A DNA stretch of 64,000 nt from a virus. Position 1 is the stretch's first letter; every line of letters starts with the position of its first letter. A program made the translations under genes and the position numbers. Location of the stretch: the IMG/VR virus record IMGVR_UViG_3300027730_000009, positions 27,974 through 91,973 of that record. One strand, given 5' to 3'. Of this stretch, positions 10,515 through 62,508 are shown piece by piece. The notes under the pieces are model-generated. The model had not been told where the DNA came from, did no database searches, and saw only the letters and a program-made list of their open reading frames with translations.

Positions 10515-10528
10515 CTATAATAAAACCA

Positions 10529-10538: not shown

Positions 10539-10554
10539 ATGTAGATGTTTGAAA

Positions 10555-15300: not shown

Positions 15301-15412
15301 TCGAATATACTAACCCTGAACTATTGGATAGATAAACCCAATTGGTAACAGTAGACGCGGAATCAAGGAACTCAAATTTTCCATCCAAAGGATAAATTAC
15401 TATGTCAGCCAC
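12389..15412 (-). CDS. collagen-like fibre with S74 chaperone (1)
   Basis: A 1007-residue fibre protein. Residues 1 to about 75 form a short beta N-domain ([11 protein letters not shown]...). Residues about 75-898 are unbroken Gly-X-Y triplets, with Gln in almost every Y position and little Pro. Residues 899-1007 are a peptidase S74 intramolecular chaperone starting SDFRLKTN, where the Ser-Asp marks the self-cleavage site, followed by the conserved IGFIAQE. The expected product is a trimer whose chaperone is removed. No receptor-binding domain separates shaft and chaperone. It contains an exact 540-bp internal duplication. It overlaps the upstream fibre gene by 8 bases. Confidence 0.93.
13490..14029 (-). 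repeat. exact 540-bp direct repeat, copy 1
   Basis: Identical to 14120-14659 base for base as far as I could compare by eye. The offset is 630 bases (210 codons), so the reading frame is kept. It lies inside the collagen shaft. Confidence 0.9.
14120..14659 (-). repeat. exact 540-bp direct repeat, copy 2
   Basis: Second copy of 13490-14029. Sequence diverges immediately outside both ends. Perfect identity indicates a recent duplication or active gene conversion. Confidence 0.9.
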
Positions 15413-18400
15413 CGATTAATGATTTGAGTTGATTAAGTTTAGTTTGTATTGATTTCACTCTTGTATTATTTTCTTTTAAAGTTGCAATACCTACGGAAAC
15501 AAGTAAATCGTATTGTAGATTTTTAAAACCATAAATATCAGTGCTCACGACTTCAGGAAAAAGTTTTTCTATTTCTTGAGCAATAAATCCTATACTTTTT
15601 CCTTTTAATAGATATTTCTGGTTTGGTTTATACCCCTCCAATTGAGGAATATTGTCTCTCCATTCGAATCTGACACCCTTCATACCAATTACACGACTTT
15701 TTATATTTTCTAATGATTTTACATTAGTTTTTAGTCGTTTATCTGATGGGGGACCTTGCGCTCCTTGGGCCCCTTGTGGTCCTTTTGGCCCTTGAGCACC
15801 TGTACCCCCTCCTATCCCTTGTGCACCTTGAGGTCCATCTGGTGGTTCCCCACCACCACCAGCTATTCCTTGAGCCCCTTGAGAACCTTGAAAGAATCCA
15901 TTTGCACCTGTGGCTCCTTGAAAACCTTGGACATTGCCAGCCCCTTGAGCTCCTTGAGGTCCAGTTGGCCCTGTTGCACCGGGGGTGATATTGGGTTGAC
16001 CGGGATGTCCAGTCACCCCAAATGAACCTTGGGCACCCTGAGGACCACCCTGAGCTCCTACAGCAGATATGGCACCCTGAGCACCAGTAGCCCCTTTAGC
16101 ACCAATAGCTTCAATTGGGTCAGCTGCAGCCCCGGGATTACCAGTATCACCAACAGCTCCACCAAATCCCGGAGCACCTGTAGTTACACTTGCAGCCCCA
16201 TTATTACCTGTCGTTCCTTGAGCACCAGTAAATCCCGGTGCACCCTGTGTCACCCCTGCAGCTCCGTTGTGACCTGTTGCACCTCCATTACCATTAGCTC
16301 CGGTATGTCCTTGGACGGCACCTTGAGCACCTTGAAATCCTGTGGCACCCTGAGCACCTCCAAATCCCGGTGCACCTTGGGTGGCACCTTGAGCTCCTTG
16401 AAACCCTGTAGCTCCTTGTGCACCAGTAAATCCTAAATCACCCGTCACAGAACTTTGAGCTCCTTGGGCTCCTTGACTTCCTTGACTTCCTTGGGCTCCT
16501 ACATGCCCTGTTGGTCCTCCTTGAGCCCCTATTTGTCCTTGGGCTCCTTGTGGACCTGTTGCGCCAGTGTGTCCTTGAACTATCGATGCTGGTCCTTGAG
16601 CTCCTTGAGGACCTTTAGTACCTTGAGCTCCGACGGCTCCTGATACTTCACTTGCGGTCCCACCGTGTCCTGTAGGTCCTTGTGCACCTATACCTCCTGT
16701 ATGTCCTTGAACAGCTCCTTGGGCACCTATATGTCCTTGGTCACCTTGAGCACCTTGTGCTCCTTTGGCACCCACAGCTGAAATCGCGTCACCGGCAGCT
16801 CCAGTGTGACCTGTAGCCCCTTGGGAACCTTGTGCTCCGGTAGCCCCTTGAACCGCATTTTGTGCACCTTGAGCTCCTTGAGAGCCTTGTGAGCCAGTAA
16901 ATCCCGGCGCTCCTTGTGTTGCCCCTGCAGCACCGATGTTACCTGTGGCTCCTTGGGAACCTGCAGCTCCCGTATGTCCCTGAACCGCACCTTGTGCTCC
17001 CTGAAACCCTTGTGCTCCTTGTGCACCAAAAATACCATCATGACCAGGGTTGACCCCTTGAGCGCCTTGTTGACCCACGGCACCTTGTGCCCCTATAATA
17101 CCTCCATGTCCTGTCACTGCACTTTGAGCTCCTGTTGCACCTTGAGCTCCCTGAGCTCCTTGACCACCGACAGCACCTTGGACAGCTCCTTGAGCTCCAA
17201 TGTGTCCCTGAGCTCCTTGAGCTCCAATAACACCAACATGTCCCTGAACCGCCGATTGAGGTCCTTGAGCTCCTTGAGGACCTTTGGTACCTTGAGCACC
17301 CTGAGCACCTGAGACTTCACTTGCGGTCCCACCGTGTCCTGTAGGTCCTTGTGCACCTATACCACCTGTATGTCCTTGAACAGCTCCTTGAGCACCTATA
17401 TGGCCTTGGTTACCTTGAGCACCTTGAGCTCCTTTCGCCCCATCAGTACCTAATCCTGCAGCAGCTCCTGTATTTCCCGTTCCTCCTTGAGCACCTTGTG
17501 CTCCGATGTTACCGGTTGGTAATCCTTGTGCTCCCACGGCTCCTTGAGCACCTTGAAAACCCATTACTCCAGAAGCACCTTGAGTACCACCATCAGCACC
17601 GATATTACCTGTAGCTCCTTGGGAACCTGCAGCTCCCGTATGTCCCTGAACCGCACCTTGTGCTCCCTGAAACCCTTGTGCTCCTTGTGCACCAAAAATA
17701 CCATCATGACCAGGGTTGACCCCTTGAGCGCCTTGTTGACCCACGGCACCTTGTGCCCCTATAATACCTCCATGTCCTGTCACTGCACTTTGAGCTCCTG
17801 TTGCACCTTGAGCTCCCTGAGCTCCTTGACCACCGACAGCACCTTGGACAGCTCCTTGAGCTCCAATGTGTCCCTGAGCTCCTTGAGCTCCAATAACACC
17901 AACATGTCCCTGAACCGCCGATTGAGGTCCTTGAGCTCCTTGAGGACCTTTGGTACCTTGAGCACCCTGAGCACCTGAGACTTCACTTGCGGTCCCACCG
18001 TGTCCTGTAGGTCCTTGTGCACCGATACCACCTGTATGTCCTTGAACAGCTCCTTGAGCACCTATATGGCCTTGGTCACCTTGAGCACCTTGTGCTCCCT
18101 TAGCTCCAATATCTAAAAATTCCGATGCCGCAGCTCCTGTATTTCCAGTTCCTCCTTGAGCACCTTGTGCTCCGATGTTACCGGTTGGTAATCCTTGGGC
18201 TCCCACGGCTCCTTGAGCCCCTTGAAAACCCATTACCCCAGACGCACCTTGAGTGCCACCATCAGCACCGATGTTACCTGTGGCTCCTTGGGAACCTTCA
18301 GCTCCCGTATGTCCCTGAACCGCACCTTGTGCTCCCTGAAACCCTTGCGCTCCTTGAGCACCAAAAATACCATCATGACCAGGGTTGACCCCTTGAGCGC

Positions 18401-19271
18401 CTTGTTGACCTACGGCACCTTGTGCACCTTCAAACCCTATATGTCCTTGTACAGCCCCTTGTGAACCGATAGCACCCTGTGCTCCTTGAGCACCGATTGC
18501 CCCTTGTGCTCCCTGAACAGCCCCTTGTGCTCCAACCTCACCTTGTGCCCCTTGGGCACCAATTGAACCTGTTTCACCTGCAACACCACCTTGGGCACCA
18601 ATACCACCTTGAGCTCCTTGAAAACCTTGAGCACCTTGTGCACCTATTGTTTCATTTGCCAATCCAACAACTCCCTCACCACCTTGAGCCCCTTGAGCTC
18701 CTTGAGCCCCTACGGTAGCCCCTTGAGCTCCTTGAGCACCTTGTGGTCCTTTAACACCTTGAGCACCTTGTGCTCCTTGTATACCTCCTTGGGCACCTTG
18801 AGCTCCGGCACCCCCTTGGGCACCTTGTGCTCCTTGTGCACCTGACACACCACCTTTAGCACCTTGAGCTCCTGTGTCCCCTTGAATCCCTTTAGCACCT
18901 TGAGCTCCTTGAGAACCTTGAGCACCCTGAGGACCTATAGGTCCAACTGCGCCCTGGGCTCCTTGGCCACCGATAGCACCTTGGAATCCTTGAATATTTA
19001 GTGGTGGTCCGACCCATTCACCGATGGTGTTTATCATCAGGGTTTCACCAGCCCAAACCCCTGATGTAGCATTGGTAATTGCAAGTCCTTTAGAGACTAA
19101 TCCTGTTGTCGAAATTTCAACAGTGTCAAATTGGGTTACCGAGGAGAAATTAATTCTGTCCGCCTCCAACATAACCACAACCATACCTGATGATACAGAA
19201 TCATCAAAAACAAAAAGTGGGTCAAGAGTTAAGGGAGAACCTTGAGGAAAAATAGTTACATTCAATGCCAT
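15405..19271 (-). CDS. collagen-like fibre with S74 chaperone (2)
   Basis: A 1288-residue paralogue of the neighbouring fibres. It has an N-domain to about residue 95 (starts [11 protein letters not shown]). A Gly-X-Gln shaft to 1175 is broken at many points by inserted residues (for example GHTG, TQGA, LPTG), unlike the smooth shaft of fibre 1. An S74 chaperone starts SDKRLKTN at 1176, with IGFIAQE. Three copies of a block of about 222 residues make up the centre. The start follows the stop of fibre 3 by one base. Self-cleavage at Ser1176-Asp1177 is expected from the family. Confidence 0.93.
16948..17357 (-). repeat. exact 410-bp direct repeat, copy 1
   Basis: Identical to 17614-18023 at an offset of 666 bases (222 codons). 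A third, diverged copy of its start lies near 18310. Confidence 0.85.
17614..18023 (-). repeat. exact 410-bp direct repeat, copy 2
   Basis: Second copy of 16948-17357, bounded by single-base differences on both sides. Confidence 0.85.
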
Positions 19272-19272: not shown

Positions 19273-22200
19273 TCAATTTATTTCATTTTCAAGGTCTTCA
19301 ATTAATTTTTGTAGTTCTTCAATAAATACTTGTTGTTCTTTAATACCTTCAACAAGTAGGGCATTTAACTTCGGATAATCGATAGAATAATAACCGTTGT
19401 CTTTTAAGTCAACCACTTGTGGTATTACGGCTCTAACTTCTTGAGCAATAAATCCAATAGAGTGTATTTGTCCTAATTCTTTATAGGTATCATAATGTGG
19501 TGCCGATTCCAACCAATCAAATTCAACGGGATTCAATTTCAAAATTTTATCTAAAGCGTCTTCAATTGTAGTAACATTTGTTTTGAGTCTCGCGTCGGAC
19601 TTTTCACATGCTGTTTGGTTAGATAGTGCAGCGCCAGGCCCAGGGTCACATTCACCTATTGTCCAACAATTCACCCCATCACTAAAATTAGCGCCTCCAA
19701 AACAAGGAGGACAACTCGTACAGGCACTATCTGAGAAAATGTTACAACCGTTAGCCAGCGTCGCACAGTTGGAGTAGAAGGTAACATTTTCACCAGAACA
19801 TACTGCCTCACAGCTCTCTGGATTACAATTCGCATTGTGGGGATAACAAGCTACTCCAGTAGCTCCTTGTGCTCCTTGAAACCCGGTAGCACCTGGTGCA
19901 CCTGTATCACTAGCACCAGGAGCACCTTGGAATCCTATTATACCGACGTCCGGAATCCCTTGGGCTCCTTTTTGTCCTTGTGGTCCACCAGGGGTACCTT
20001 GAGCACCTGTTGCACCAGGGGTAGTGTTATTAGCACCTGGTGCGCCACCAGGTCCAGGTGGACCGCCCCCGCCAGGAGGTCCTGCAGCTCCTTGTGAACC
20101 TTGCGGACCCTTAGTACCTTGCGCGCCTGTTGGACCTGGATTACCTGGAGGTAAAGTTGAACCTGTAGCTCCTTGTGCTCCCTGTACCCCTTGAGGACCT
20201 CTCGCCCCTTGTGACCCTTGTGGCCCAACAGCACCCTGAGCACCTTGAGGACCTGTAGCTCCTATGGTACCTTGCGCCCCTTGTGGTCCAACAGCACCCT
20301 GTATCCCTTGTGCTCCTTGAGGTCCTCTACCTCCTTGAGCTCCTTGAGGTCCTACTCCTCCTTGACTTCCTTGAGAACCTTGAGGTCCTCGGGCACCGAC
20401 ATCACCAGTTCCTCCTCCAGCACCTTGTGAACCTTGAGAACCCTGTGGTCCTCTAGCACCGACATCACCAGTTCCTCCTCCAGCACCTTGTGAACCCTGA
20501 CCCCCTTGAGGTCCTCTATTACCTTGAGCTCCTGTACCTCCTGTTGCTCCTTGTGAACCTTGACCACCTTGAGGTCCACGAGCACCTTGCGAACCTTGAG
20601 CTCCCTTGGCTCCTTGTGCCCCTTGAGACCCTTGTGGTCCGATATTTCCTTGAGCGCCAGTTTCTCCTGTTGCCCCTTGTACCCCTTGTGCTCCTTGACC
20701 CCCTATCAGTCCTTGAGCTCCTTGGAATCCGACAGCACCTTGAGCTCCTTGAACTCCTTGTGGACCTCTAGCCCCTTGGACACCTATTGGACCTTGAGCA
20801 CCTTGTGCTCCTTGTACTCCTTGTGGACCTCTTGGTCCTTGGACTCCCTGAGGACCTATGGCACCTTGAACACCTTGGGAACCTTGTGGTCCTCTATTAC
20901 CTTGAGCACCTGTTCCTCCTTGCGCACCTTGCGACCCTTGGGCTCCTTGAGGTCCTCTATCTCCTTGAGCTCCTTGGCCTCCTTGAGCCCCTTGAGCACC
21001 TTGAGCACCCTGAGGTCCTAAGGCTCCGGTGTGTCCAGTGGCTCCAGCAGCACTCTGTGAACCTTGAGACCCTTGTGGTCCTCTTGCCCCGATTTCTCCA
21101 GTAGCTCCTTGAGCTCCTTGGGACCCTTGAGCACCTTGTGGTCCTACGCTACCCTGAGCTCCAGTTCCTCCAGTTGCTCCTTGTACACCTTGTGCTCCTT
21201 GAGGTCCAACGGACCCTTGGGACCCTTGAGCTCCCTTAGCCCCTTGAGCTCCTTGAGACCCTTGTGGTCCGACATTTCCTTGAGCTCCAGTCTCTCCAGT
21301 TGCTCCTTGTGCCCCTTGTGCTCCTTGACCTCCTATCAGTCCTTGTGCTCCTTGGAATCCGACAGCACCTTGAGCCCCTTGGGCTCCTTGCGGACCTCTA
21401 GCTCCTTGAGACCCTATTGGACCTTGAGCCCCTTCCGCTCCTTGTACTCCTTGTGGACCTCTTGCCCCTTGTGAACCTTGTGGTCCGACAGCACCCTGAA
21501 GTCCTTGTGCCCCTTGAGGTCCTCTGGCACCTTGGGCTCCTTGAGCTCCTACGGCATCATTTTGTGCTCCTTGTGCCCCTTGAGGTCCTCTACCTCCTTG
21601 TGACCCTTGAGGTCCAACAGCACCTTGAACTCCTTGGGCACCCTGAGGTCCTAAAGCTCCGGTATCTCCTGTTGCTCCAGGAGCACTCTGAGAACCTTGA
21701 GACCCTTGTGGTCCTCTTGCCCCGATTTCTCCAGTAGCTCCTTGAGCTCCTTGGGACCCTTGAGCACCTTGAGGTCCTACGCTACCCTGAGCTCCAGTTC
21801 CTCCAGTTGCTCCTTGTACACCTTGTGCTCCTTGAGGTCCAACGGACCCTTGGGACCCTTGAGCTCCCTTAGCCCCTTGTGCCCCTTGAGACCCTTGTGG
21901 TCCGACATTTCCTTGAGCACCTGTTTCTCCAGTTGCTCCTTGTACCCCTTGTGCTCCTTGACCTCCTATCAGTCCTTGTGCTCCTTGGAATCCGACAGCA
22001 CCTTGAGCCCCTTGGGCTCCTTGCGGACCTCTAGCTCCTTGAGACCCTATTGGACCTTGAGCCCCTTCCGCTCCTTGTACTCCTTGTGGACCTCTTGCCC
22101 CTTGTGAACCTTGTGGTCCGACGGCACCCTGAACACCTTGTGCCCCTTGAGGTCCTCGGGCTCCTTGGGCACCTTGAGCACCTACGGCATCATTTTGTGC

Positions 22201-23778
22201 TCCTTGTGCCCCTTGAGGTCCTCTATTTCCTTGAGCTCCTTGGCCTCCTTGAGCCCCTTGAGCTCCTTGAGCGCCCTGAGGTCCTAAGGCTCCGGTGTGT
22301 CCAGTGGCTCCAGCAGCACTCTGAGAACCTTGAGACCCTTGTGGTCCTCTTGCCCCGATTTCTCCAGTAGCCCCTTGTGCTCCTTGGGACCCTTGAGCAC
22401 CTTGGGGTCCTATGTTTCCCTGAGCACCTTGGGCACCTTCACCACCTTGTGCTCCTTGAGCACCCTGTGGACCAACTAATCCTTGAGCCCCTTGAGCCCC
22501 TTTTGAGCCTTGTGACCCTTGTGGCCCGAAAGGTCCTACTAATCCTTGGGCACCTTGTCCTCCTTTTGCTCCTTGTACCCCTTGAGCTCCTTGGGGACCC
22601 GCAGCACCTTGAGCACCTTGAGAACCTATTCCTCCTTGAGCACCTTGTGCCCCTTGAGGCCCGATAGCACCTGTGGCTCCTTGGAAACCCTCGGCACCTT
22701 GTGCTCCGATGTTACCCGTGGAGCCGATTGCCCCCTCAGAACCTTGAGCACCAGTAGTTCCCTCAGCACCTTGAGCACCAGTAGGTCCTATTGCTCCTTG
22801 AACACCCTGAGGCCCTTTGGGACCTTGTGCACCTTGAGCACCAACAGCAGCATTTAGAGTATTGTTGTAATCCAAAAATTCGATACCAAAAAACATTTTG
22901 ATATCTTGATTCACATTAGTGCTTCCTGAAGTAAAAGATATCCCAAAATCCCAATAGTTACCAAACAAGGATGTACTAGTAACATTATAGAGATAATTAC
23001 CATCGAGAGGTCCATCAACATCGAGTAATTCAACTCTTAAATCCCAGTTATTATCAATTTGAGAAAATATACTACTTAAATCAACAAGTCCAGCTCCTTG
23101 AGGTGTAGTTCCTCCTGAAACTGAGACTGACATTGTGTTAACACCAGTCACTGTTGTGTCACTATTAGTCGCCGCAACCCTTAGAGCCCCATCAAAAGTC
23201 GAGTCAGCTACCCATGTCCACCAATATGGACCATAAATTGTTGGTTGACCACCACCTTGATTTCCTTGTGGTCCTTGAGCACCTTGCGCACCTTGGGCAC
23301 CAATGGCACCCTGAGCACCTGTAATATTGGTACCAGGTCCTGTCCAATTTCCTGTACCATCCAAGACTTGTGTACCTCCGACCGATAAAAAGTTAGTGAC
23401 CGTAAGGGTTGAAAACACATAAACCTCAGGAGAACATCCTCCCAAGTTTGATGAAAGAACATCACTAATATCTGTTACTGTACTTGGTCTTACACAACGA
23501 TAATAAGTTAGACCCGAAGGAACATTAATAGTTTCTAATACCCCTGTACTACAATTACGATATGTCGCAACCCCCGTTCCTCCACCAGTTGCCAAAAATG
23601 AAAAGTAATCACAATTTTCTTGGGGTGCAAATAAAACTTGGTTTTCAAATAACAAAGAGGCATCATATAACACCAAAATTTTGAACTTAAAACTTGGGTC
23701 AGTCTCAAATAATATTTCAGGAATGTTTCCAGGTCTTGAACGTATATTACTTGGAAATATTGTTAGATTCTTTGCCAT
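19273..23778 (-). CDS. collagen-like fibre with S74 chaperone (3)
   Basis: A 1501-residue protein, first of the three fibre genes. An N-domain covers 1-152 ([11 protein letters not shown]...). A short collagen stretch is followed by an inserted beta-rich domain at about 178-311. The Gly-X-Gln shaft runs to about 1309. A cysteine-rich domain at 1310-1393 has 12 Cys, enough for six disulfides. The S74 chaperone starts SDARLKTN at 1394, with IGFIAQE. After self-cleavage this fibre would keep the cysteine-rich domain as a possible tip. The shaft carries a 633-base super-repeat, three times. A TATTTATAGT box lies 14 bases upstream and probably drives all three genes. Confidence 0.93.
21024..22922 (-). 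repeat. 633-bp super-repeat region in fibre 3
   Basis: The segment CTCCGGT plus about 110 flanking bases recurs at 21024, 21657 and 22290, giving a period of 633 bases (211 codons). Long parts are identical, for example around 21330-21480 against 21963-22113. The outer limit is approximate. Confidence 0.6.
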
Positions 23779-51393: not shown

Positions 51394-53085
51394 TTATACC
51401 CCCACTGCATGGGAGAAGGTTGCAGTTCCTTGGTTAAATGACGCGGTACAACAGTTACATCCACTTATATTAACATTCGTTAGAGAAACGGTAATATTTT
51501 GTGTTAATAATGTTGAACATCCGTTTATGTTTGCCGGGTTATCCAAACTAATTTGTGATATACTTGTTCCACTTATTATATCACCACTTGTCATTGTAAG
51601 TGGGAATATTTCGGTGAAGTCCGTTTCTGTTTGAGTCTGTGGTGAACAGAATGGTCGTGGTTGTAGTGAAGTCGTTGTTGTTGCAGTGGTAAATTGCGCT
51701 ACCCCGTTTTTCTTAACAACAGTTGCGTAATCTATAATACCATTACCTGGTCTTTGTTCGAGTTGGTCAATAAGAATATTAAGGTTATACGACATTGTAA
51801 CTCCCGCAGGAAGTGCCGGTGATACCACCACTTGCCATTGTTGTTGTTTGGTAATTGATGCTGTATTTAAACTCAAAACTTGTAATCCAACAGAGTAGTT
51901 AATTATTGTACCCGCATTCGGTACGATAACTTGTTGGGTATAGGTGTTTCCTGAAGAATCAAGGAGCGTTATTGGGTAACTGCCACCACAGATACTACTG
52001 AAGATATTACCATTTTGATAACTGGAACCATTATCAATTGAATATTGATAGGGTGGTACCCCACCGAATGGTGTGACAATCACCGAACCATTACATACAC
52101 CCTCACAATTTGCCGGTGCAATTTGAGTGTTAAAGAATAAACTATTGAATGGTTGGCAAACCCCTTGGTTGACATTAACTGTAGCGGTGTAAGTACCTGC
52201 AATAGATATCCATCCACTTGTTGGTATAATTGATGTGGTATTACTTCCCAGGATTGCACCTTGGTATGTGTATCCTGTTATTCTCCATCCTTGAATTGGT
52301 GACCATTGAACATAATATCCATTTGTTGCGTCAAACCATCTTGGATATCCATTTAAGTATCCATTGAAGGTAAACTCAAGTTGTTGTGTTGTTCCATCAC
52401 TCCAAATAATATTGAAACAAAGTCCTGAGAAACTTGGTGTTGCCGACGGGGTGACTGTCGGAGTGGCAGTATTGGTTGGTGTTGGTGAGGGAGCAATAAG
52501 TTCACAATTGGTAATTGCCGTGTAATCACCCCAATAATCAACTACGGTGACATTGTAAAATCCACCACCCAAATTAAACAAGTAAGGAGTTTTCTGCCCA
52601 CCCTCCCAACTAATATTATATGGTGAGGTTCCACCAGTGATTCTTAAAAATAACTTACCATCTAAACTATCAGGACCCGTTGGGTTAATCCCCGAACATT
52701 CCACACCCAATGGAAACAAAGTAATAACATCACAATCATTTTTGGTTGTAAATACAGCCTCCCTTGATGGAGTTGGAGTAACTGTTGGTGTATGTGTTGA
52801 AGTTGGCGATATTGTTGGGGTTGGGGTGTTTGATGCTGTATTTGTCGGTGTAACAGTCGGGGTAGGAGTTGTAGTTGGTGTGGGACAAACAGTAGATGCC
52901 GGGACATTCAATATGTTAACCCCCGCATAGGGTAAAGCGTAATTTAAACTTACAAGTTCTTCTAAACCATATCCTTCTTGGAAATTACCACAACAATCGG
53001 TGTAGTAGTAATTACCAGTGGTAACACCTGAACCACACAGAATCGGTGTGGGAGAAGGGGTAGTTGTTGGTGTTGGTGTACTCAT
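51394..53085 (-). CDS. modular cysteine-containing protein with Thr-Pro linkers (563 aa)
   Basis: The start is placed at 53085 (MSTPTPTTTPSPTP). Folded, beta-rich modules are separated by Thr-Pro linkers such as TPTPTVTPTNT, near residues 1-15, 70-110 and 205-225. A later part (about 330-540) resembles SprB-type or Ig-like beta repeats: GVCNGSVIVTPFGGVPPYQYSID with SICGGSYPITLLDSSGNTYTQ. This SprB-like repeat is known in gliding adhesins of flavobacteria. I infer a virion surface or adhesion protein. It lies one base downstream of the next modular gene. Confidence 0.8.
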   Translation of the reverse strand: MSTPTPTTTPSPTPILCGSGVTTGNYYYTDCCGNFQEGYGLEELVSLNYALPYAGVNILNVPASTVCPTPTTTPTPTVTPTNTASNTPTPTISPTSTHTPTVTPTPSREAVFTTKNDCDVITLFPLGVECSGINPTGPDSLDGKLFLRITGGTSPYNISWEGGQKTPYLFNLGGGFYNVTVVDYWGDYTAITNCELIAPSPTPTNTATPTVTPSATPSFSGLCFNIIWSDGTTQQLEFTFNGYLNGYPRWFDATNGYYVQWSPIQGWRITGYTYQGAILGSNTTSIIPTSGWISIAGTYTATVNVNQGVCQPFNSLFFNTQIAPANCEGVCNGSVIVTPFGGVPPYQYSIDNGSSYQNGNIFSSICGGSYPITLLDSSGNTYTQQVIVPNAGTIINYSVGLQVLSLNTASITKQQQWQVVVSPALPAGVTMSYNLNILIDQLEQRPGNGIIDYATVVKKNGVAQFTTATTTTSLQPRPFCSPQTQTETDFTEIFPLTMTSGDIISGTSISQISLDNPANINGCSTLLTQNITVSLTNVNISGCNCCTASFNQGTATFSHAVGV

Positions 53086-53086
53086 A

Positions 53087-53731
53087 TTAGCAAGCAACAA
53101 AATCAGTTATGTACCCAGACGAATCTATCTGTACCGCGTAGTTCACACCATTGAAGACCATCAACCTCCATTGGTTGTTTTGGTTTACAGGAGAAAACAA
53201 TCCTCCCCCAAAAGTAAGTTGATAGACTGTTGCCCCCAAAACAGGGATTGTTGGTGTTTCACTATAGGAAGTATAGTATGGTGTGGCTAAAAGGGTATCC
53301 AAACAAGCCGAAGCCGAGGAAGCATAAAGGAACCTTCCAATCAAATGAGCGTAAACCAAACTTGTAGGGGTCGGAGACGGAGTCTGAGTTTGTGTTTGAG
53401 TAGGGGTAGCACCAGGTGTTCTTGTCGGAGTAATTGAAGGTGTTTGGGTAACTGTTCCCGTCGGAGTATTCGATGGAGTCTGAGTGGGAGATGCCGTTAA
53501 TGTCAATGTCGGAGTGGGTGTCACCAAAATTGGTACAATATCCTCACAAGATGCCGTGTCAATAATCTTAATCGTAAAATCTGACGTAGCATAAGTGTCA
53601 TCAACCTCAAACTGATAAGGAAATACAGCAACAGTTGCAACATAAGTACAACCCGACCCCACACTGTCACAGACAAATATCTGAACTGGGGTGTTACCTG
53701 TTACGGATTGTATTTGAACATTGATTGGCAT
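53087..53731 (-). CDS. Thr-Pro linker protein with C-rich N-domain (214 aa)
   Basis: The start is placed at 53731 (MPINVQIQSVTGNTP), overlapping the upstream stop by one base. Residues 1-65 form a beta domain (TPVQIFVCDSVGSGC, FPYQFEVDD, FTIKIIDTASC) homologous to the whole of the 73-residue protein encoded just upstream. A linker of about 65 residues made of TPT/TQT repeats follows, then a C-terminal beta domain. The layout matches a secreted or surface-exposed stalk, yet there is no signal peptide, so it is likely a virion part. Confidence 0.8.
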   Translation of the reverse strand: MPINVQIQSVTGNTPVQIFVCDSVGSGCTYVATVAVFPYQFEVDDTYATSDFTIKIIDTASCEDIVPILVTPTPTLTLTASPTQTPSNTPTGTVTQTPSITPTRTPGATPTQTQTQTPSPTPTSLVYAHLIGRFLYASSASACLDTLLATPYYTSYSETPTIPVLGATVYQLTFGGGLFSPVNQNNQWRLMVFNGVNYAVQIDSSGYITDFVAC

Positions 53732-53952
53732 TATACTGTCGTGGCACCTGATATTACACAACCGAAGTTGTCGATTATTTTCAATAAATAACTCTCTGAG
53801 CTATTATATGGGGCAGGGATATCAAATTCATAGGGTATATCTCCATCGGTAATCTCAGAAATAAAGAAACAACCTGTGTTTCCTGTCTGACAGATATAAA
53901 CCTGATATGGTGTTGAACCCGTGATATCATTTATGTATACTCTAACTGCCAT
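53731..53952 (-). CDS. stand-alone C-rich beta domain (73 aa)
   Basis: This protein is a single copy of the beta domain found at the N-terminus of its downstream neighbour: the pattern I..ITG.TP.Q.YIC....GC..I..I....PYEFD...Y..S...L.KIID..GC is shared, including three Cys. It probably arose by duplication. It overlaps both neighbours by one base (TAATG), so all four genes of this run are translationally linked. Confidence 0.8.
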   Translation of the reverse strand: MAVRVYINDITGSTPYQVYICQTGNTGCFFISEITDGDIPYEFDIPAPYNSSESYLLKIIDNFGCVISGATTV

Positions 53953-56699
53953 TATTCACATTCTGTTATTGAAGAGGGGGTTATGGATTGAATTCCTGTG
54001 ATTGTTTTGGTAACGGTTTCTGGTAATGTTGTCGCAGGGCAACTCTCACAAGTGGTAGAATCAAATATAGTTTGTCCTTGAACAAGTCCTTGAGGAACTG
54101 TCACGGTTAAGGTTTCATTTTGAGTTCCGAGACAATCATTTCTTTGGACATCGAATGTTACAACCACATTGTTGGTTGCCGCTACAAGGGCGTTAGTTAC
54201 GGAATTTCTAAGTTGAACAATCACTCGGCTTTGTTCTCTTGTATATCCACCACAAGAATCAGGAAGATTCTGTGTCCATGGAAGGATGTCGTAAGTTATA
54301 CATAATGACACTGGTTCACCACCACCTTGAGGAGTTAATCCTTGGTCAATCGGTGCTGTCTGACATGTTAAACAGTTTGAGTAAACCGTTGGAATGAAGT
54401 TAAAGTAATTACCTGAGAAATTAACCAATATGGTGATAAACTCAGGAGAGTAACTTGTGAAACTACCAAGGTATGACCAACAGTTCCCTGCGTTGTCCTT
54501 GAAAGACTGACCGATATTAATTCCAAATCCTACAGGACTTGTCTGAACTATTGTTGTTTGATTACCACCTTGTGGATTCAAATTACAACTTACAAACACA
54601 TAAACCAATTCTAATGTTGTTGTAGAGGGGGTTGGAGTCACCGTTGGAGTTTGTGTTGGGGAAGGAGTAATGGTCGGAGTGTTAGATGGTGTTGGAGTAG
54701 CAATCTGATTACATGTCTCACAGTTTCCATAAATACCGATTATAGAATCGATTGTACTATTTGAAGATAGGTTATCGTCGTTTCTATCGTATATTAAACA
54801 GAACAAGGCCCCACCGATATAAGCGGCAAACGATACTCCGATATTAATAGGTGTACCACTAAACTCCAAGTCATCGGTTGTATAAAACTCTAAATTACTA
54901 TTACAATCGACCAATACTTTTGTGGTAGGACAACTAAACTCCTCTTGGAAGAAGGTATATGTAATTTGACCTTCTACGGGAACTGTCTTTGTCGGAGTTA
55001 ATGACACTGTCGGCGATGGTGTTGGAGTAATGGGAGTATAACCACTCATAGCAAAATCCAACCCAACAATACACGCATTGGGTGGAGTAGTTGGTGTTGG
55101 TGTAATTGGAAATGCGGTCACAAACATGTCTACCAATTCACATGGAATCGATGGTGTGGGTGTTACAAATGGTTCGAAATCACAATCGAAAAAAGCTGTA
55201 AAATCTAAGATATTACAATTAATAGGTGATGGCGTAGGTGTTGGACATGGACCCGTAGTAAATAAGTTTGCCGAAATATCAGGACATGAAGAATAACATG
55301 GGTTATTACCCTCGAGTAGACAAACACCACCCAAAGAATCACTCAAACACCAATAAGAACCAGTGTAATAGATGTAGGCAATCGGAGTTGTATCACCCGT
55401 GTAATAAGTTCTTGAGTTATATGTACCACCTGAAGTGTAGTTTCCACTATAACCTGACAAAGACGGTAAAATGGTACTTAGACAGAAAACCGAAGAATCA
55501 CAAGCACTTGGTGTTGTAGAGGGACTTGGAGTAACTGTCGGTGTAACATTTGGCGTTGGGGTTGGAGTTGGGGTAACAGAACAGAATGAACAATCAAAAA
55601 AATCGGGTTGACCTAAATTCGGTCCACCAGGTCCCGAAAACTCAACAAATTCATAACACTCATCATTATAGAGGTATGCCGCACCCACAAATGCCACGTC
55701 TTGTTGTACTATAGCATAAAATACTGTTCCATCAGAACATTTTGTCAGAAGTGCATTTGTTAGAGTCGCACTTCCCGTTTCACTTGGAGTTGGGGTATTG
55801 GTTGGGGTAAAGGAAGGTGTTGGTGTGTTCGTTGTTGTTGGTGTCTGAGTTGGTGTTGGACAAGGTGAGAACCCTTGACATACCACACAATCACCCCCTG
55901 AGTTTGTGAAAACAACACCCGAACCTGTGTATAGTGGTCCCGTCGCAGAAAATGGTAAAACTGTGGCACATCCGTTGAAATCAACTGAACTTGATATAAT
56001 ATATGTCACACCCTCAGATAGTATTCCCGAAACATTTTCAAATCTGAACACAGAACTGTCACAACAACTACTAAACAAATAAACATCATAAGGCTCCGTT
56101 GGTGTTGGTGTTGTAGTATTTGTCGGTGTTGGCGTTGGTGTTGCCGGACACGCTGCTGATGGGTTGAATGCAATACAATCTCCACATTCCAAATATGTAC
56201 CATTTATTGTATCTGTGGCTATGTTCCAGGAATATGTGGAGTATGGTCCAGGAAGTGAAGCTTCTGCTGTTGTACATCCTGTAAACGAAAGTGAAGGTAT
56301 TTCTAAATAATAGCTGTTCCCAGGTCCAACAAACAAATCAGTATTTGAGGTGACCTCCAACTCCAATACTGGGCTACAACAACCAGAAAAATAATAAGTA
56401 AAACTGGCTGGAGTTGGTGTTGGAGTTGCTGTTGGTGTAGGTGTTAAATCTCCACAAGTTTCTTGAGATGTGATTAAACCAGCCCCACCAGTTACAACAA
56501 AAACAGTAATTGGGTCAACATTATAATTAATATACCAACCATTAGATACTGGAGTTGTGCATGCAGCGTCTAAGTACAAACTTTGTCCAACTGCCGGAAG
56601 GGTACTAGGACTCACATAAAAATTATCAATGCCAGGTGAAGTACATGCAGCATTTTTGCTGACAGTACTCCATCTCATTTGATTAACTATTGTGCACAT
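53952..56699 (-). CDS. large modular cysteine-rich protein with Thr-Pro linkers (915 aa)
   Basis: A chain of about eight small beta modules, each with 4-8 cysteines (for example FSGCCSPVLELEV, FSSCCDSSVFRFEN, and paired CE.C or C..CQ ends), separated by Thr-Pro linkers (TPTPTATPTPTP, TPTPTNTTTPTPTE, TPTQTPTTTNTPTP and others). Modules 2 and 3 are clearly related to each other. No signal peptide or catalytic motif. Stiff Thr/Pro linkers are classical O-glycosylation targets. The glycosyltransferase gene lies on the other strand only about 1 kb away. I infer a virion decoration or adhesion fibre. Confidence 0.8.
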   Translation of the reverse strand: MCTIVNQMRWSTVSKNAACTSPGIDNFYVSPSTLPAVGQSLYLDAACTTPVSNGWYINYNVDPITVFVVTGGAGLITSQETCGDLTPTPTATPTPTPASFTYYFSGCCSPVLELEVTSNTDLFVGPGNSYYLEIPSLSFTGCTTAEASLPGPYSTYSWNIATDTINGTYLECGDCIAFNPSAACPATPTPTPTNTTTPTPTEPYDVYLFSSCCDSSVFRFENVSGILSEGVTYIISSSVDFNGCATVLPFSATGPLYTGSGVVFTNSGGDCVVCQGFSPCPTPTQTPTTTNTPTPSFTPTNTPTPSETGSATLTNALLTKCSDGTVFYAIVQQDVAFVGAAYLYNDECYEFVEFSGPGGPNLGQPDFFDCSFCSVTPTPTPTPNVTPTVTPSPSTTPSACDSSVFCLSTILPSLSGYSGNYTSGGTYNSRTYYTGDTTPIAYIYYTGSYWCLSDSLGGVCLLEGNNPCYSSCPDISANLFTTGPCPTPTPSPINCNILDFTAFFDCDFEPFVTPTPSIPCELVDMFVTAFPITPTPTTPPNACIVGLDFAMSGYTPITPTPSPTVSLTPTKTVPVEGQITYTFFQEEFSCPTTKVLVDCNSNLEFYTTDDLEFSGTPINIGVSFAAYIGGALFCLIYDRNDDNLSSNSTIDSIIGIYGNCETCNQIATPTPSNTPTITPSPTQTPTVTPTPSTTTLELVYVFVSCNLNPQGGNQTTIVQTSPVGFGINIGQSFKDNAGNCWSYLGSFTSYSPEFITILVNFSGNYFNFIPTVYSNCLTCQTAPIDQGLTPQGGGEPVSLCITYDILPWTQNLPDSCGGYTREQSRVIVQLRNSVTNALVAATNNVVVTFDVQRNDCLGTQNETLTVTVPQGLVQGQTIFDSTTCESCPATTLPETVTKTITGIQSITPSSITECE

Positions 56700-56970: not shown

Positions 56971-57013
56971 GTTTTACTTTGAAAAGTAATTGCTTATTTT
57001 TTCAGAAAAAAAA

Positions 57014-57802
57014 ATGCCTTACAGCCATTCATTTTTCAAACAAGATGTAAAAGTTTTTTTTGAAAAAACTTTATCCTTAGATTCCAAAATTTTGGACGTT
57101 GGACCTGGTTTGGGAACTTACTCCAACTTATTAAAACCTTTAGGGTTCAAACTGGATTGTTTGGAAATTTTTGCACCCTATATCTCAGAGTACGATTTAG
57201 TAAACAAGTACGAAAATGTTATAGAAGGTGATATTAGAGATTTTGACTTTTCAGACTATGATTTTATTATTATGGGCGATGTGTTGGAGCATTTAACAAT
57301 AGAGGACTCACAAAAAATTCTCAACAAAATAATAGAAAAAAACCAAGAGTGTTTGATTGCCGTACCTTATTTATGTGAGCAAGGTACTATGGAAGAAAAC
57401 GAATATGAAACTCATCTTCAACCAGAACTTACACCAGAGCTTGTAATTAAACAATACCCTCAACTAGACTTGCTTGTTAGAAATCAATACTATGGATATT
57501 ACATAAATCGAAGGGGTGATGGTAATTTGCGTTGGGATTTGGACAGACAAGAGTTTGTTAGTATCCCACAACAAAAAATATATTTAGATACAATTACTGA
57601 AGATGAGGTTTTTTTCACAAACCAAACAGATAACGAAGTTGAAGTTGACGTAATTGTTAGTAGTGATACTGGAACACATTACACCACAAAATTAAATTTA
57701 GTTCCTCACGTGAGATATTTTGTAAAAGTTCCCGGAAAGTTTTCAAATAAAAAAATTTCATTTGTATCTGAAAATATAAACAAACATTATTGGATGAATT
57801 AA
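57014..57802 (+). CDS. SAM-dependent methyltransferase with C-terminal beta domain
   Basis: A 262-residue class I methyltransferase. The SAM-binding motif ILDVGPGLGTYS is at 26-37, followed by DCLEIF and the acidic loop MGDVLEHL, so the fold is complete. The segment CEQGTMEENEYETHLQ resembles small-molecule or sugar O-methyltransferases. The last 80 residues form a separate beta domain like those in the next gene product and in the sulfotransferase. I chose ATG at 57014 rather than an upstream TTG. It ends one base before the glycosyltransferase gene, so it probably methylates the same glycan. Confidence 0.85.
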   Translation: MPYSHSFFKQDVKVFFEKTLSLDSKILDVGPGLGTYSNLLKPLGFKLDCLEIFAPYISEYDLVNKYENVIEGDIRDFDFSDYDFIIMGDVLEHLTIEDSQKILNKIIEKNQECLIAVPYLCEQGTMEENEYETHLQPELTPELVIKQYPQLDLLVRNQYYGYYINRRGDGNLRWDLDRQEFVSIPQQKIYLDTITEDEVFFTNQTDNEVEVDVIVSSDTGTHYTTKLNLVPHVRYFVKVPGKFSNKKISFVSENINKHYWMN

Positions 57803-57803: not shown

Positions 57804-60800
57804 ATGTCTTTTTATTTTAAGGGTATTAAAATTGCCGATTGTTGTTATGTTCTCAATCTACCAACCAGGATAGATAGAAAAAAAGTTGTTGATGAACTTT
57901 TATCATCATTGTTTTTTTCTGGTTACACTTTTTTTGATGGTCAAGTAATTGAAAATCCAGAATTAAAAAAATTTGGATGCACCTTTTCTCATTTACAGAT
58001 TTTTCAAGAATTTTTAAAAACCGATAAACAAACTATTGTCATATTGGAGGACGACATAAAATTATTCAATGGGGTCAACAATTATCATTTGGATAATGTA
58101 TTCAATAATTGGGAAGAAACGATTTCTAATTATGATGTAATTGCTTTGGGGACAAAACTTTTACCAAGAAGTGTAATAGAACCTGAAGGTGAAACGCATG
58201 GAAATTTCAAAGAATTACTTTGCGCACATGGATTTTTTTACCACCGGACTGTTGTAGAACATATTGTTGATAAGTTATCAAATTTCGATAAACCTGGACA
58301 CCCTTTATACAAGTGTGCGATTGATATGTTTTTAAATGACATTTCAAATGTAAGATATCGGTTCAGACATTTTCATGAACTTAAAAGTTTTAAATTTGGA
58401 ATTACAATTCCAATGATTTTTAATCAATCAGCCGGCTATTCAGATAATGAAGAAACTAACGAAAATTACGAAAATTTAATTGAGCAAGCATATTGGAATG
58501 CTTTACCCATCCCAAAAAATGAAGTTATGAAAGACGAAAAAAAACCAAGAGGTTTTGTATATTATTGCAACGAAAAATACATTCCAATTGTTGAGCAATC
58601 TATACGATTAATGAGGAAATATACATCATTACCCATATACGTTTACCTTGTTGACTGCAGTTATGATTTCAAACTACCCAATGTAAACACCATAATATGG
58701 TCAGTCGAATTAGAAAATTTCGATGATGAGATGTATACCAAAGAGGATGAGAATTTTTACATTCGAAGAGAAGACAAAAGGTTCTACAAGCTTTTAATTC
58801 AACGACCATTAATTGTAAAACATTGTTTAGAAAATTTTTTAGAAACCGCAGCTTATGTTGACACCGATTCAGTCCCTATGCCTTGGGTTGAAAACTTTTT
58901 CAATCATTTTCATTATGATTCAGAAGTCCCTTATTTTACAGAATGTTTTTACAGTTATCTATCCCTCAATGGTAGAGGAAGTGGTCCTGATAATGACTTT
59001 ACAAACACGCTAGAACACGAAACTTGTGAGCTATTAGGTGTTGACCAAAGTGTGAGAAAATGGTATCGTCAAACTGGCTATTTTATCGCAGGACAAAACT
59101 GTTTGGATTTCTTAGACGAATGGCATTGGTTTTGCACCCACCCAAAAATTTTGGAAAATCCTGAGCTTTATGCTCCCTTCCATGAAGAAACCATTATGAA
59201 CGTAATGATGTGGAAAAAAAAGGTTTTCAAAGGGCTTCATTTGGTTTACGTAAACGCTACGTCTGAAACCGTTGATAAGCTCTTTAATGAAATTACTTTC
59301 AATGGTGAAAATCAAATTTTGGGTCCATGGTTTGGAGTTCCCGGTGAATTAGAACACATCTACTTTTTACATGGTGAAAAAAGATTGGAAGTAATGAGTG
59401 AAATGTCAAAAAAAATAGACAACTACACAACCAAAACTAAACCAAGAATTCTTTTTCTAGCCCCCCATTTATCAACTGGAGGAATGCCAGGATTTTTACT
59501 TAAAAGGATTTTGACCCTTCAAGAATATAGAAACGAGTTTGATTTATATGTTGTTGAATACTCCAATTACAGTGATGAATATGTTGTTCAAAAAACTAGC
59601 ATAAAACACATCATTCCAAAATCCAATTATTTCACTTTGGGTTCAGACAAAATGGAGTTAATTGACATTATTAAGAGGAATAAAATTGATGTAGTTCACA
59701 TTGACGACAATATTGAATCTTTAGAAACTTTCAATCGGACCCCAACAGCATTGATGAATGCGTTGTATGCAAACGACAGGTCTTGGTTTATTGTAGAGAC
59801 TTGTCACAACGTTTCTTTCAAACCTGAATTATCTAAAACTTTTCATCCGGATGCTTATGCTTTTTGTAGCCCATGGCACAAAGCAGTTAGTTTTTCTACA
59901 ATGCCTTCATATTCCGAGGTTATCGAATTTCCCATCGATACTTTGTCAACACCAGATGAAATTAAAGAGGGGATTCAAACTGCACTTGGTTTAAATCCAG
60001 AAAAAATTCATATTGTAAATGTAGGTCTTTGGACACCAGGAAAGAATCAAAAAGAGGGTATTGAACTTGCAAGATTATTTGAATTTAGTAATCCCGAATA
60101 TGAGTTTCACTTTATTGGCAATCAGGCACCTAATTTCAAGGACTACTGGGAACCATTGATGATGAATTTACCAAGTAATGTTAAAGTTTGGGGTGAACGT
60201 AAAGACGCATCACTTTTTATTCAAGCTTCTGATGCATTCCTCTTTAATTCTACTTGGGAATGTAATCCTTTAGTTTTGCGTGAAGCCATATCTTTTGGTA
60301 AAAAAATTCTAGCAAGAAACCTTCCGGAATATATGGGAATGTTTGACGAGTATATCGTACCAATTAACAGCAACTTAGAGGAGCTTAAAACTAAGCTCGT
60401 TGACTTGGTAAAATCAGACATTTGTTATTTGGTTCCCGAGGGACAATCCAAGGATTTTGCAAATAAAAATGCTGATTTATATCATAAGGTAATTAATTCT
60501 CCAAAAATGGAGAATGAAAGAATGGTTACGGATGTAAAAATTATTCAACATTTTGTAAATCAACCATTCCTAGAAATCGTTGGTAACTCGGATTCGGATT
60601 TTAGAGTTGAATTTTATGATGAACAGGGTGTTTGCCATTATAACAACACGATTAAATCAAATCATTGGATACGACTTAATCGACAATACTACACCAAATG
60701 GACAACTAAAGTTTATAAAGACGACAAATTGATTCACAACAAAACTTTGGATTTAAAAAATAAGAGAGTCTTCATTTCTTTTGATAGCAAATCTTTAGGA

Positions 60801-61598
60801 GATAGCGTTGCTTGGATACCTTATGTTCTAGAGTTTCAAACTAAACATGACTGCAAAGTTATTGTATCCACATTTTGGAATAAGCTTTTCAAAAACACAT
60901 ATCCCGAACTTGAATTTGTTGAGCCAGGAGCTGTTGTCCACAACTTAATGGCTATGTACAAGTTAGGTTGGTTTTACAATATGGATATGGAACCAGTTGC
61001 ACCAAATCTTATTCCACTGCAAAAAGCAGCATCGAACATTTTAGGTTTAGATTTCGAAGAAATTCAACCGAGAATAGATGTCCATATTAAAGAAAGACCC
61101 TACAAGGAAAAGTATGTGGCTATTGCAACCAATTCAACTGCAGGTTTGAAATTTTGGACAAGAGATGGTTGGCAACAACTTGTTGATTACTTAATATCAA
61201 AAGGGTATAAGGTGATTAACGTTTCAAAAGAAAAAAATCCTTTCAGGGGAGTGAACGAATTAAAAGATACTTCTATTGAAAATACAATGAACGTGATACA
61301 CCACAGTGAATTTCTAATAGGACTTTCCAGTGGATTGTCTTGGCTTAGTTGGGGTATGGGAAAACACGTTGTAATGATTTCGAACTTTACAAAAGATGAC
61401 CACGAATTTACTTCAAATTGTACTAGAATCACGAATCCTGAAGTATGTAATGGTTGTTGGAATAATCCAAAATTTGTATTCGACAAAGGAGATTGGGATT
61501 GGTGTCCAGAACACAAAGGAACCCCAAGACAATTTGAATGTCACACTTCTATCACCCCAAAAATGGTGATAAATAAAATTGAAAAACTAGTTAGTTGA
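57804..61598 (+). CDS. four-module glycosyltransferase fusion (GT25-like, GT-A, GT4-like, TibC-type)
   Basis: A 1264-residue protein with four enzyme modules. Residues 10-210 are GT25-like: CYVLNLPTRIDRKK, FGCTFSHL and VILEDDI (79-85). Residues 250-500 are a GT-A module with DTDS at 353-356. Residues 545-900 are a GT-B, GT4-like module: RILFLAPHLSTGGM, VGLWTPGKNQKEG and NPLVLREAISFG. Residues 910-1264 are a beta domain plus a TibC/Aah-type heptosyltransferase: FDSKSLGDSVAWIPYV, STFWNKLF, GLSSGLSWLSWGMGKHVV and the four-Cys finger C1215, C1218, C1234, C1246. It should assemble a multi-sugar glycan on protein in the cytoplasm. Donor and acceptor are unknown. Confidence 0.9.
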   Translation: MSFYFKGIKIADCCYVLNLPTRIDRKKVVDELLSSLFFSGYTFFDGQVIENPELKKFGCTFSHLQIFQEFLKTDKQTIVILEDDIKLFNGVNNYHLDNVFNNWEETISNYDVIALGTKLLPRSVIEPEGETHGNFKELLCAHGFFYHRTVVEHIVDKLSNFDKPGHPLYKCAIDMFLNDISNVRYRFRHFHELKSFKFGITIPMIFNQSAGYSDNEETNENYENLIEQAYWNALPIPKNEVMKDEKKPRGFVYYCNEKYIPIVEQSIRLMRKYTSLPIYVYLVDCSYDFKLPNVNTIIWSVELENFDDEMYTKEDENFYIRREDKRFYKLLIQRPLIVKHCLENFLETAAYVDTDSVPMPWVENFFNHFHYDSEVPYFTECFYSYLSLNGRGSGPDNDFTNTLEHETCELLGVDQSVRKWYRQTGYFIAGQNCLDFLDEWHWFCTHPKILENPELYAPFHEETIMNVMMWKKKVFKGLHLVYVNATSETVDKLFNEITFNGENQILGPWFGVPGELEHIYFLHGEKRLEVMSEMSKKIDNYTTKTKPRILFLAPHLSTGGMPGFLLKRILTLQEYRNEFDLYVVEYSNYSDEYVVQKTSIKHIIPKSNYFTLGSDKMELIDIIKRNKIDVVHIDDNIESLETFNRTPTALMNALYANDRSWFIVETCHNVSFKPELSKTFHPDAYAFCSPWHKAVSFSTMPSYSEVIEFPIDTLSTPDEIKEGIQTALGLNPEKIHIVNVGLWTPGKNQKEGIELARLFEFSNPEYEFHFIGNQAPNFKDYWEPLMMNLPSNVKVWGERKDASLFIQASDAFLFNSTWECNPLVLREAISFGKKILARNLPEYMGMFDEYIVPINSNLEELKTKLVDLVKSDICYLVPEGQSKDFANKNADLYHKVINSPKMENERMVTDVKIIQHFVNQPFLEIVGNSDSDFRVEFYDEQGVCHYNNTIKSNHWIRLNRQYYTKWTTKVYKDDKLIHNKTLDLKNKRVFISFDSKSLGDSVAWIPYVLEFQTKHDCKVIVSTFWNKLFKNTYPELEFVEPGAVVHNLMAMYKLGWFYNMDMEPVAPNLIPLQKAASNILGLDFEEIQPRIDVHIKERPYKEKYVAIATNSTAGLKFWTRDGWQQLVDYLISKGYKVINVSKEKNPFRGVNELKDTSIENTMNVIHHSEFLIGLSSGLSWLSWGMGKHVVMISNFTKDDHEFTSNCTRITNPEVCNGCWNNPKFVFDKGDWDWCPEHKGTPRQFECHTSITPKMVINKIEKLVS

Positions 61599-61602: not shown

Positions 61603-62508
61603 TTATTGAGAACGGTTTTCCCAAGGAAAATCTTCGGTAGTGTTTTCTAAACCCAACCAATTTGTGAATTTCTTTAATTCTCCTGGTTTTTCAATTTCAA
61701 CAATAAAAAAGTTTTTCTTTTTGGAAAAAAAATTCACACAATTTTCAATGTGTGTATCATATACTTTTGTTAATTTGTTTTCCAGATTATCTAAACTATC
61801 TATGCCCCATGATTTAAAAATAGGATATAGGTGACCTATAAGTTTAGATTGTGTCCCATCCGACATGTATGTGTGAATATATGAATTATCGAAAATTAAA
61901 GCATTCCCTTTAAGCGAATCGTAAAAGTTTACAACGCTCTTAACCCATTTTTTGGTGTTTGCTCTAAGGGTTAACACATAAATGTCATTTGGTCTATTAT
62001 CAAATATTATTTCATGAATGCCTGGAAAAGAAAATGGCGCATCATTAAATACATTGTACTGGGGGTTATTTAAAATAGATATTAATTTACCATAATCTTT
62101 GTGAAAAACATCTGGAACAACATTGTGTAATAAGGCTTGTTCTGGAAAAACACTATAACCGAAATTATCTAATGCTTTGACAAAAGAAGATGTACCAGTT
62201 TTGTTCAAACCCAAACAAATTATGTTTTGTGTTTTACTTGAATCAGATAACTCAGTTTCAATAAGTTTTTCTGACAAAAGCTCCTTAGATGTTGCATCCC
62301 TCAAAATTAGTTTTGAACAGCCACGATAATCTAAATTTGGTATAAACCAAACCCCTTTTCCTTGAAAACAAAACGTGATTGTTCGATTAACCCATTCAAC
62401 ACCCAAAAGGTTTGTAGATATTGTTACAGTAATTGGGTCTGAACCTAAATAAATTATCTTATATCTATTATTAACAATTTCAAATTTAAAAATGTCTTTC
62501 CAGTGCAT
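61603..62508 (-). CDS. sulfotransferase with N-terminal beta domain
   Basis: A 301-residue protein. Residues 1-90 form a beta domain similar in shape to the accessory domains of the neighbouring methyltransferase and glycosyltransferase. Residues 95-301 are a sulfotransferase of the Sulfotransfer_4-like type: IICLGLNKTGTSSF at 96-109 is the PAPS 5'-phosphosulfate loop, NDAPF follows, and LTLRANTKKWVKSV is the 3'-phosphate-binding segment. It would move sulfate from PAPS to a hydroxyl, most likely of a sugar. It converges on the glycosyltransferase gene with 4 bases between the stops. A TATTTATAAA box is 26 bases upstream. Confidence 0.85.
   Translation of the reverse strand: MHWKDIFKFEIVNNRYKIIYLGSDPITVTISTNLLGVEWVNRTITFCFQGKGVWFIPNLDYRGCSKLILRDATSKELLSEKLIETELSDSSKTQNIICLGLNKTGTSSFVKALDNFGYSVFPEQALLHNVVPDVFHKDYGKLISILNNPQYNVFNDAPFSFPGIHEIIFDNRPNDIYVLTLRANTKKWVKSVVNFYDSLKGNALIFDNSYIHTYMSDGTQSKLIGHLYPIFKSWGIDSLDNLENKLTKVYDTHIENCVNFFSKKKNFFIVEIEKPGELKKFTNWLGLENTTEDFPWENRSQ

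What the first reader, a model, noticed from the sequence alone, without database searches (positions are those of the whole stretch)
57804..61598. Four glycosyltransferase modules fused in one phage polypeptide
The 1264-residue product carries, in order, a GT25-like module, a GT-A module with DTDS, a GT4-like GT-B module and a C-terminal module with the hallmarks of TibC/Aah autotransporter heptosyltransferases, including a four-cysteine finger (C1215, C1218, C1234, C1246). In TibC such cysteines bind iron. Joining all steps in one chain suggests ordered, processive building of a short glycan. I know of no described phage enzyme with this full set.
Basis: partly seen in the sequence, partly recalled or inferred. 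Interest (0 to 1): 0.87.

Follow-up and report, generated by a model that had tools for sequence, protein, structure and literature searches.

The report
Multi-enzyme sugar synthase for phage fibres
One large phage protein strings together four sugar-attaching enzymes and sits beside the Ser/Thr-rich collagen-like tail-fibre gene it probably decorates; it belongs to a widespread, module-swapping and apparently undescribed phage enzyme family.

Summary
Window 57804-61598 encodes an intact 1264-aa protein with a GT25-like module, a DxD GT-A module, a GT4-type GT-B module and a C-terminal module that passes the curated cut-off for Aah/TibC heptosyltransferases (TIGR04414), with TibC's iron-finger cysteine spacing. 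It is not unique: a scan for the TibC module found 465 encoded relatives in viral contigs. In 32 of 45 non-redundant ones it is fused to the same GT-A and GT4 modules; the N-terminal modules are exchangeable. One pair is 97% identical over GT4-TibC, then switches abruptly to different modules. Six-unit (S/T)(S/T)G repeat tracts lie near the gene in 21/33 loci versus 2/47 control stretches of the same phages. In the seven bacterial genomes that have a TibC-type relative and any such tract, every tract lies in the relative's locus. Likeliest role: O-glycosylation of collagen-like and Thr/Pro-rich fibre proteins, the TibC module placing the first sugar and the others extending and capping it. One correction: the adenine-contacting Arg of TibC is Thr in 41/45 phage modules, so ADP-heptose as donor is unproven. 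The GT25 fold could not be modelled. Acceptor, donor and order are inferred.

The parts
57804..61598 (+). 1264-aa four-module glycosyltransferase
   Evidence: ORF; sole copy in the 91,973-base virus record
57804..58538 (+). GT25-like module (aa 1-245), EDD at 82-84
   Evidence: PF01755 32 bits over cut-off 24; 49-51% identical to the same module in L017; model unreliable
58539..59423 (+). GT-A module (aa 246-540), D353-x-D355 and HGEK at 523-526 invariant
   Evidence: 29-row alignment; AF2 pLDDT mostly above 85, Foldseek PDB E 1e-6 to GT6/GT24/GT8 enzymes
59424..60518 (+). GT4-type GT-B module (aa 541-905), E819-x7-E827
   Evidence: PF00534 39 bits; fold hits BshA, HepE, WaaG; E819/E827 invariant in A5
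60519..61598 (+). TibC/Aah-type module (aa 906-1264): beta-barrel, GT-B, iron finger; D1000 = TibC D110
   Evidence: TIGR04414 285.5 bits; 4rb4 3e-49; Foldseek 4rap TMt about 0.8 over 370 columns
61446..61541 (+). four-cysteine iron finger C1215, C1218, C1234, C1246
   Evidence: invariant in 45/45 phage modules; same spacing as TibC
56990..57802 (+). class I methyltransferase, 1 nt upstream; relatives are fused to the N-terminus of the same enzyme in other phages
   Evidence: PF08241/PF13489 over cut-off; phmmer 1e-49 to 1e-60 to fused relatives
61603..62508 (-). sulfotransferase, candidate glycan-capping enzyme
   Evidence: PF17784 48 bits
62572..64000 (-). collagen-like TSG/TTG-repeat tail-fibre protein (runs off the contig end), proposed acceptor
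   Evidence: PF01391 9e-26; PHROG tail fibre 9e-26; 33 T-x-G triplet matches, 0 expected
51394..56699 (-). three Thr-Pro-rich proteins (51394-53100, 53087-53761, 53952-56699), second proposed acceptors
   Evidence: ORFs, S/T 42-45% in the best 60 aa; same kind of neighbour in L007, L024, L029, L032
12389..23778 (-). three collagen-like proteins (12389-15412, 15405-19271, 19273-23778); the first two end in Peptidase_S74 chaperone domains (third not scanned, looks alike); tail fibres of the same phage
   Evidence: PF01391 and PF13884 for the first two; ORFs read

Best explanation
A phage-encoded glycan assembly line for virion proteins. The C-terminal TibC-type module attaches the first sugar to Ser/Thr in low-complexity repeats ((T/S)(T/S)G collagen-like tracts, probably also Thr-Pro tracts) of tail-fibre-type proteins encoded next door. 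The GT4, GT-A and GT25-like modules then add further sugars, probably in C- to N-terminal order, and the neighbouring methyltransferase and sulfotransferase probably cap the glycan. Shown: folds or family matches, conserved catalytic residues, repeat-protein linkage, module swapping. Inferred: acceptor, donors, sugar order, fibre decoration, biological role (masking fibres from host factors or other proteins, or tuning adsorption).
For: TIGR04414 and TibC matches. S/T-rich ORF in 27/30 neighbourhoods versus 14/47 control stretches of the same records, p=1e-7. Six-unit (S/T)(S/T)G tracts 21/33 versus 2/47, p=6e-9. Independent bacterial evidence: mostly stand-alone relatives in Gammaproteobacteria and others; in all seven genomes with any six-unit tract (2-9 Mb each) every tract lies in the relative's locus, often in a small putative lipoprotein gene. 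TibC-family genes are known to lie beside their substrate gene (PMC4358343). Graded architectures TibC / GT4-TibC / GT-A-GT4-TibC / X-GT-A-GT4-TibC. Switch of upstream modules at the GT4 boundary in L006 versus L007 with 96.6% nucleotide identity downstream. Fused versus separate methyltransferase. The same record encodes a UDP-galactopyranose mutase and two GT2 enzymes.
Against: No biochemical evidence. Adenine-contact Arg-286 is replaced by Thr in 41/45 phage modules, although Ala there impaired TibC. No ADP-heptose genes in this record, though it may be a fragment. Some loci lack TSG tracts, and tail-region clustering plus shared ancestry inflate the phage statistics. It is not known whether the host makes ADP-heptose. 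Loci were fetched with the TibC module, so its constancy is partly by construction.
Confidence: 0.66

Rival explanations
1. The enzyme modifies the host surface (LPS, O-antigen or capsule) to block superinfection, as proposed for glycosyltransferases of pelagimyophages.
For: GT4/GT9/GT25 families are typical of LPS synthesis; such a role is proposed for GTs in phage host-recognition islands (PMC7029224).
Against: The TibC-type module is the protein-modifying branch (TIGR04414), not WaaC-like; its bacterial relatives lie beside SSG/TSG-repeat proteins; no lipid-carrier partner gene was seen beside the window enzyme.
Confidence: 0.15
2. The enzyme hypermodifies phage DNA with a glycan.
For: Virus-encoded GT sets that hypermodify DNA exist (cited in PMC12619734).
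Against: No hydroxymethyl-pyrimidine synthesis genes noticed among the ORFs of the record read by eye; the gene sits in the fibre region; the presumed initiating module is of a protein-modifying family.
Confidence: 0.05
3. The enzyme glycosylates virion proteins, but the acceptor is not the neighbouring repeat protein (for example capsid), and the linkage reflects insertion in a variable tail region.
For: Capsid and tail-tube glycans are known in mycobacteriophages (Freeman 2023, cited in PMC12619734); the cassette lies on the strand opposite to its flanking fibre genes, like a moron.
Against: Bacterial relatives show the same repeat partner without an evident phage tail context.
Confidence: 0.12

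Closest known systems
TibC/Aah bacterial autotransporter heptosyltransferases (BAHT, TIGR04414; PMC4358343)
   Same: Family match over cut-off, fold, D110/T226/K230/W305 and the four-Cys iron finger; gene beside a Ser/Thr-rich repeat partner.
   Different: Fused to three other GTs; partner is a collagen-like or Thr-Pro fibre, not an autotransporter; adenine-contact Arg-286 is Thr.
Chlorovirus PBCV-1 A111/114R (three GT domains, 860 aa; PMC7826918)
   Same: One viral polypeptide with several GT domains for a capsid glycan.
   Different: Eukaryotic virus, N-glycan, three domains, no TibC-type initiator; works alike, no homology was tested.
Mycobacteriophage virion glycosylation (Freeman et al. 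2023, known here only as cited in PMC12619734)
   Same: Phages glycosylating virion proteins.
   Different: As cited, glycans at capsid and tail-tube C-termini; to my knowledge made by separate GT genes.
Microcystis phage Mel-JY01 WWT39291.1 (annotated 'methyltransferase FkbM')
   Same: GT4 ... methyltransferase ... TibC-type fusion beside TSG-repeat ORFs.
   Different: Different upstream modules; TibC module outside the window's clade.
Serine-rich repeat adhesin glycosylation of Gram-positive bacteria (own knowledge; topic of PMC5207161, listed)
   Same: Sequential GTs building glycans on Ser-rich repeats, encoded beside the acceptor.
   Different: Separate enzymes, different initiating GT (GtfA/B).

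Membership tests
TIGR04414 Aah/TibC heptosyltransferase | Score over the curated cut-off | tested here: met
   285.5 vs 200 bits
TIGR04414 Aah/TibC heptosyltransferase | Four-Cys iron finger and catalytic Asp | tested here: met
   C1215/1218/1234/1246 and D1000, invariant in 45/45 phage modules
TIGR04414 Aah/TibC heptosyltransferase | Donor-binding residues T226, K230, R286, W305 | tested here: inconclusive
   T1112, K1116, W1180 kept; R286 is T1161, so the ADP donor is unproven
TIGR04414 Aah/TibC heptosyltransferase | Autotransporter partner gene | tested here: not met
   Neighbours are collagen-like and Thr-Pro-rich proteins, no autotransporter; so not filed as an autotransporter heptosyltransferase in function
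TIGR04414 Aah/TibC heptosyltransferase | Dodecamer, iron binding, ADP-heptose transfer | not testable with these tools
   needs purified protein
GT25 (PF01755) | Family score over cut-off, EDD motif | tested here: met
   32 vs 24 bits but only residues 56-92 match; EDD 82-84
GT25 (PF01755) | GT25 fold | tested here: inconclusive
   pLDDT below 50, two sequences only
GT4 (PF00534) | Family score, EX7E motif, GT-B fold | tested here: met
GT8 | Specific GT8 family match | tested here: not met
   no Pfam hit for 246-540; Foldseek spread over GT6/GT24/GT8; GT-A fold with DxD only

The most novel reading that the evidence does not exclude
A widespread phage enzyme family builds O-glycans on collagen-like tail fibres with a fixed initiating module and swappable outer modules, so that phages change the sugar coat of their fibres by recombining modules inside one gene; the donor of the initiating step is not ADP-heptose.
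Probability: 0.4. Interest if true: 0.86.

Novelty: new variant of a known kind. Interest (0 to 1): 0.74.

Why it matters
If right, many environmental phages carry their own protein O-glycosylation machines aimed at tail fibres, with module swapping analogous to O-antigen variation. That would give a function to the abundant TSG/collagen-like repeats of phage fibres, extend the Aah/TibC family beyond autotransporters to a general (S/T)(S/T)G acceptor, and provide single-chain enzymes for making defined glycans. It is testable with one co-expression experiment.

Tried and rejected
A shared beta-domain linking the TibC barrel, the methyltransferase C-terminus and the sulfotransferase N-terminus: no similarity. 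Phage relatives of the GT25 or GT-A modules in annotated phage records: none. Direct scan with the whole protein: none. GT25 scan of viral contigs: only L017, limited by patterns drawn from two sequences. ADP-heptose synthesis genes in this record: none found among three families searched. Literature for phage-borne Aah/TibC homologues: none found in the held library.

Full report
CHECK. Window 57804-61598 (+) is an intact 1264-aa ORF and the only copy in the 91,973-base IMG/VR virus record that holds the window. Pfam finds GT25 (56-92), GT4 (726-865) and GT9 (1095-1207), all over cut-off; NCBIfam TIGR04414, Aah/TibC heptosyltransferase, covers 930-1262 with 285.5 bits against a cut-off of 200; phmmer finds crystallised TibC at 3e-49. 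The four cysteines 1215/1218/1234/1246 have exactly the spacing of the iron ligands 339/342/358/370 of TibC (PMC4358343), and D1000 falls on its catalytic base D110.

FOLDS. With alignments of window and locus proteins only, AlphaFold2 gave a confident GT-A domain for 246-540, which Foldseek places among GT6, GT24 and GT8 enzymes at about 1e-6; D353, D355 and the HGEK at 523-526 are invariant in 29 sequences. Residues 541-1264 modelled at mean pLDDT 88.8; Foldseek gives TibC (E 9e-29, TMt about 0.8 over 370 columns), then GT4 enzymes such as BshA and HepE. The GT25 part modelled below pLDDT 50, so its fold rests on the Pfam match, the EDD motif and the one relative with the same module.

RELATIVES. 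Scanning viral contigs with the TibC-module alignment found 465 encoded relatives, of which the best 80 loci were read. After collapsing at 90% identity, and with three phage-record proteins added, 45 proteins carry the module: 31 share GT-A-GT4-TibC and one shares GT25-GT-A-GT4-TibC. Further N-terminal or inserted modules are class I methyltransferases, FkbM methyltransferases, a GT32-like sugar-binding domain, GT2 and a pyruvyltransferase. L017 has FkbM-GT25-GT-A-GT4-TibC. L006 and L007 are 96.6% identical at the nucleotide level over GT4-TibC and then switch abruptly to different upstream modules: outer modules are swapped while the C-terminal ones stay. The methyltransferase just upstream of the window gene (1 nt gap) has relatives fused to the N-terminus of the same enzyme in many phages. 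TibC, GT4-TibC, GT-A-GT4-TibC and X-GT-A-GT4-TibC form a graded series, which I read as core-to-tip sugar order from C- to N-terminus (inference; the TibC module was the search query).

ACCEPTOR. The window gene is flanked by a collagen-like TSG-repeat tail-fibre ORF and three Thr-Pro-rich proteins. Across relatives, 27 of 30 neighbourhoods with at least 10 kb of flank hold an ORF with at least 45% Ser/Thr in 60 residues, against 14 of 47 stretches taken elsewhere in the same records (p=1e-7); for tracts of six or more (S/T)(S/T)G units it is 21/33 against 2/47 (p=6e-9). Shared descent and tail-gene clustering weaken these numbers. The independent test is cellular: 17 genome contigs encode relatives, most of them about 380 aa and stand-alone. 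A pattern for six (S/T)(S/T)G units occurs in seven of these genomes (2-9 Mb), and every match in all seven falls in the relative's own locus (coordinates compared), several in small putative lipoproteins. TibC-family genes are known to neighbour their substrate gene. I therefore take such repeats as the likely acceptor.

DONOR. D110, T226, K230 and W305 equivalents and all four cysteines are invariant in 45/45 phage modules, but the adenine-contact Arg-286 is Thr in 41/45 (T1161 here), while it is Arg in 12/17 cellular ones. Heptose genes occur in a few relatives (gmhA over cut-off in LR756504; an HldE-kinase-like protein in LR756501; weaker adenylyltransferase/kinase-like pairs in two others) but not here. 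The donor is thus open.

ORIGIN. The tree puts the window module in a phage clade of 43 rows (100/99); the megaphage and Microcystis phage modules fall outside, so the module was probably acquired more than once. A T9SS sorting-type tail in the record suggests a Bacteroidota host. Large lake phages with genomes of similar size to some of the relatives are predicted to infect Bacteroidetes, and in them an FkbM-domain protein is among the most transcribed genes (PMC9723584); whether that is this enzyme, or those are the same phages, was not tested.

KNOWN. Single-chain multi-GT enzymes for virion glycans are known from chlorovirus PBCV-1 (PMC7826918), and phage virion glycosylation from mycobacteriophages (as cited in PMC12619734). 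I found no paper in the held library on TibC-type modules in phages. I rate this a new variant of a known kind.

Noticed in passing
L142:10690-14180 (G000 outside the window): UDP-galactopyranose mutase (PF03275, 7e-78) next to two GT2 genes in the same phage record: a possible phage-owned galactofuranose supply for glycans.
   Followed up: partly
L007:11788-14526, similar ORFs in L006, L032, L024: About 760-912 aa ORFs in the fibre region; the one scanned (L007) carries several Hint/intein-type domains and an AXH module; unusual combination, role unknown.
   Followed up: partly
L007:15112-17701; similar-looking ORFs in L032:14547-16575: Runs of small ORFs, two of which (L007) match 2OG-Fe(II) oxygenases (PF13640, one over cut-off), in the fibre region; could hydroxylate Pro/Lys of fibre proteins.
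   Followed up: partly
L082:11065-13557: APS kinase-like and cytidylyltransferase-like genes and a sulfotransferase-looking ORF (by eye) beside the enzyme: a possible sulfation route parallel to the window's sulfotransferase.
   Followed up: partly
L143-L151: Bacterial TibC relatives, mostly stand-alone, paired with small SSG/TSG-repeat proteins, several lipoprotein-like with acidic tails: an apparently undescribed bacterial O-glycosylation pair.
   Followed up: yes
L141:12446-14341: 631-aa phage-record protein with T9SS (Por) sorting tail and dockerin-like repeat, pointing to a Bacteroidota host.
   Followed up: partly
window 5960-6760 and 10408-11145: ORFs that look by eye like LAGLIDADG-type and GIY-YIG homing endonucleases.
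   Followed up: no
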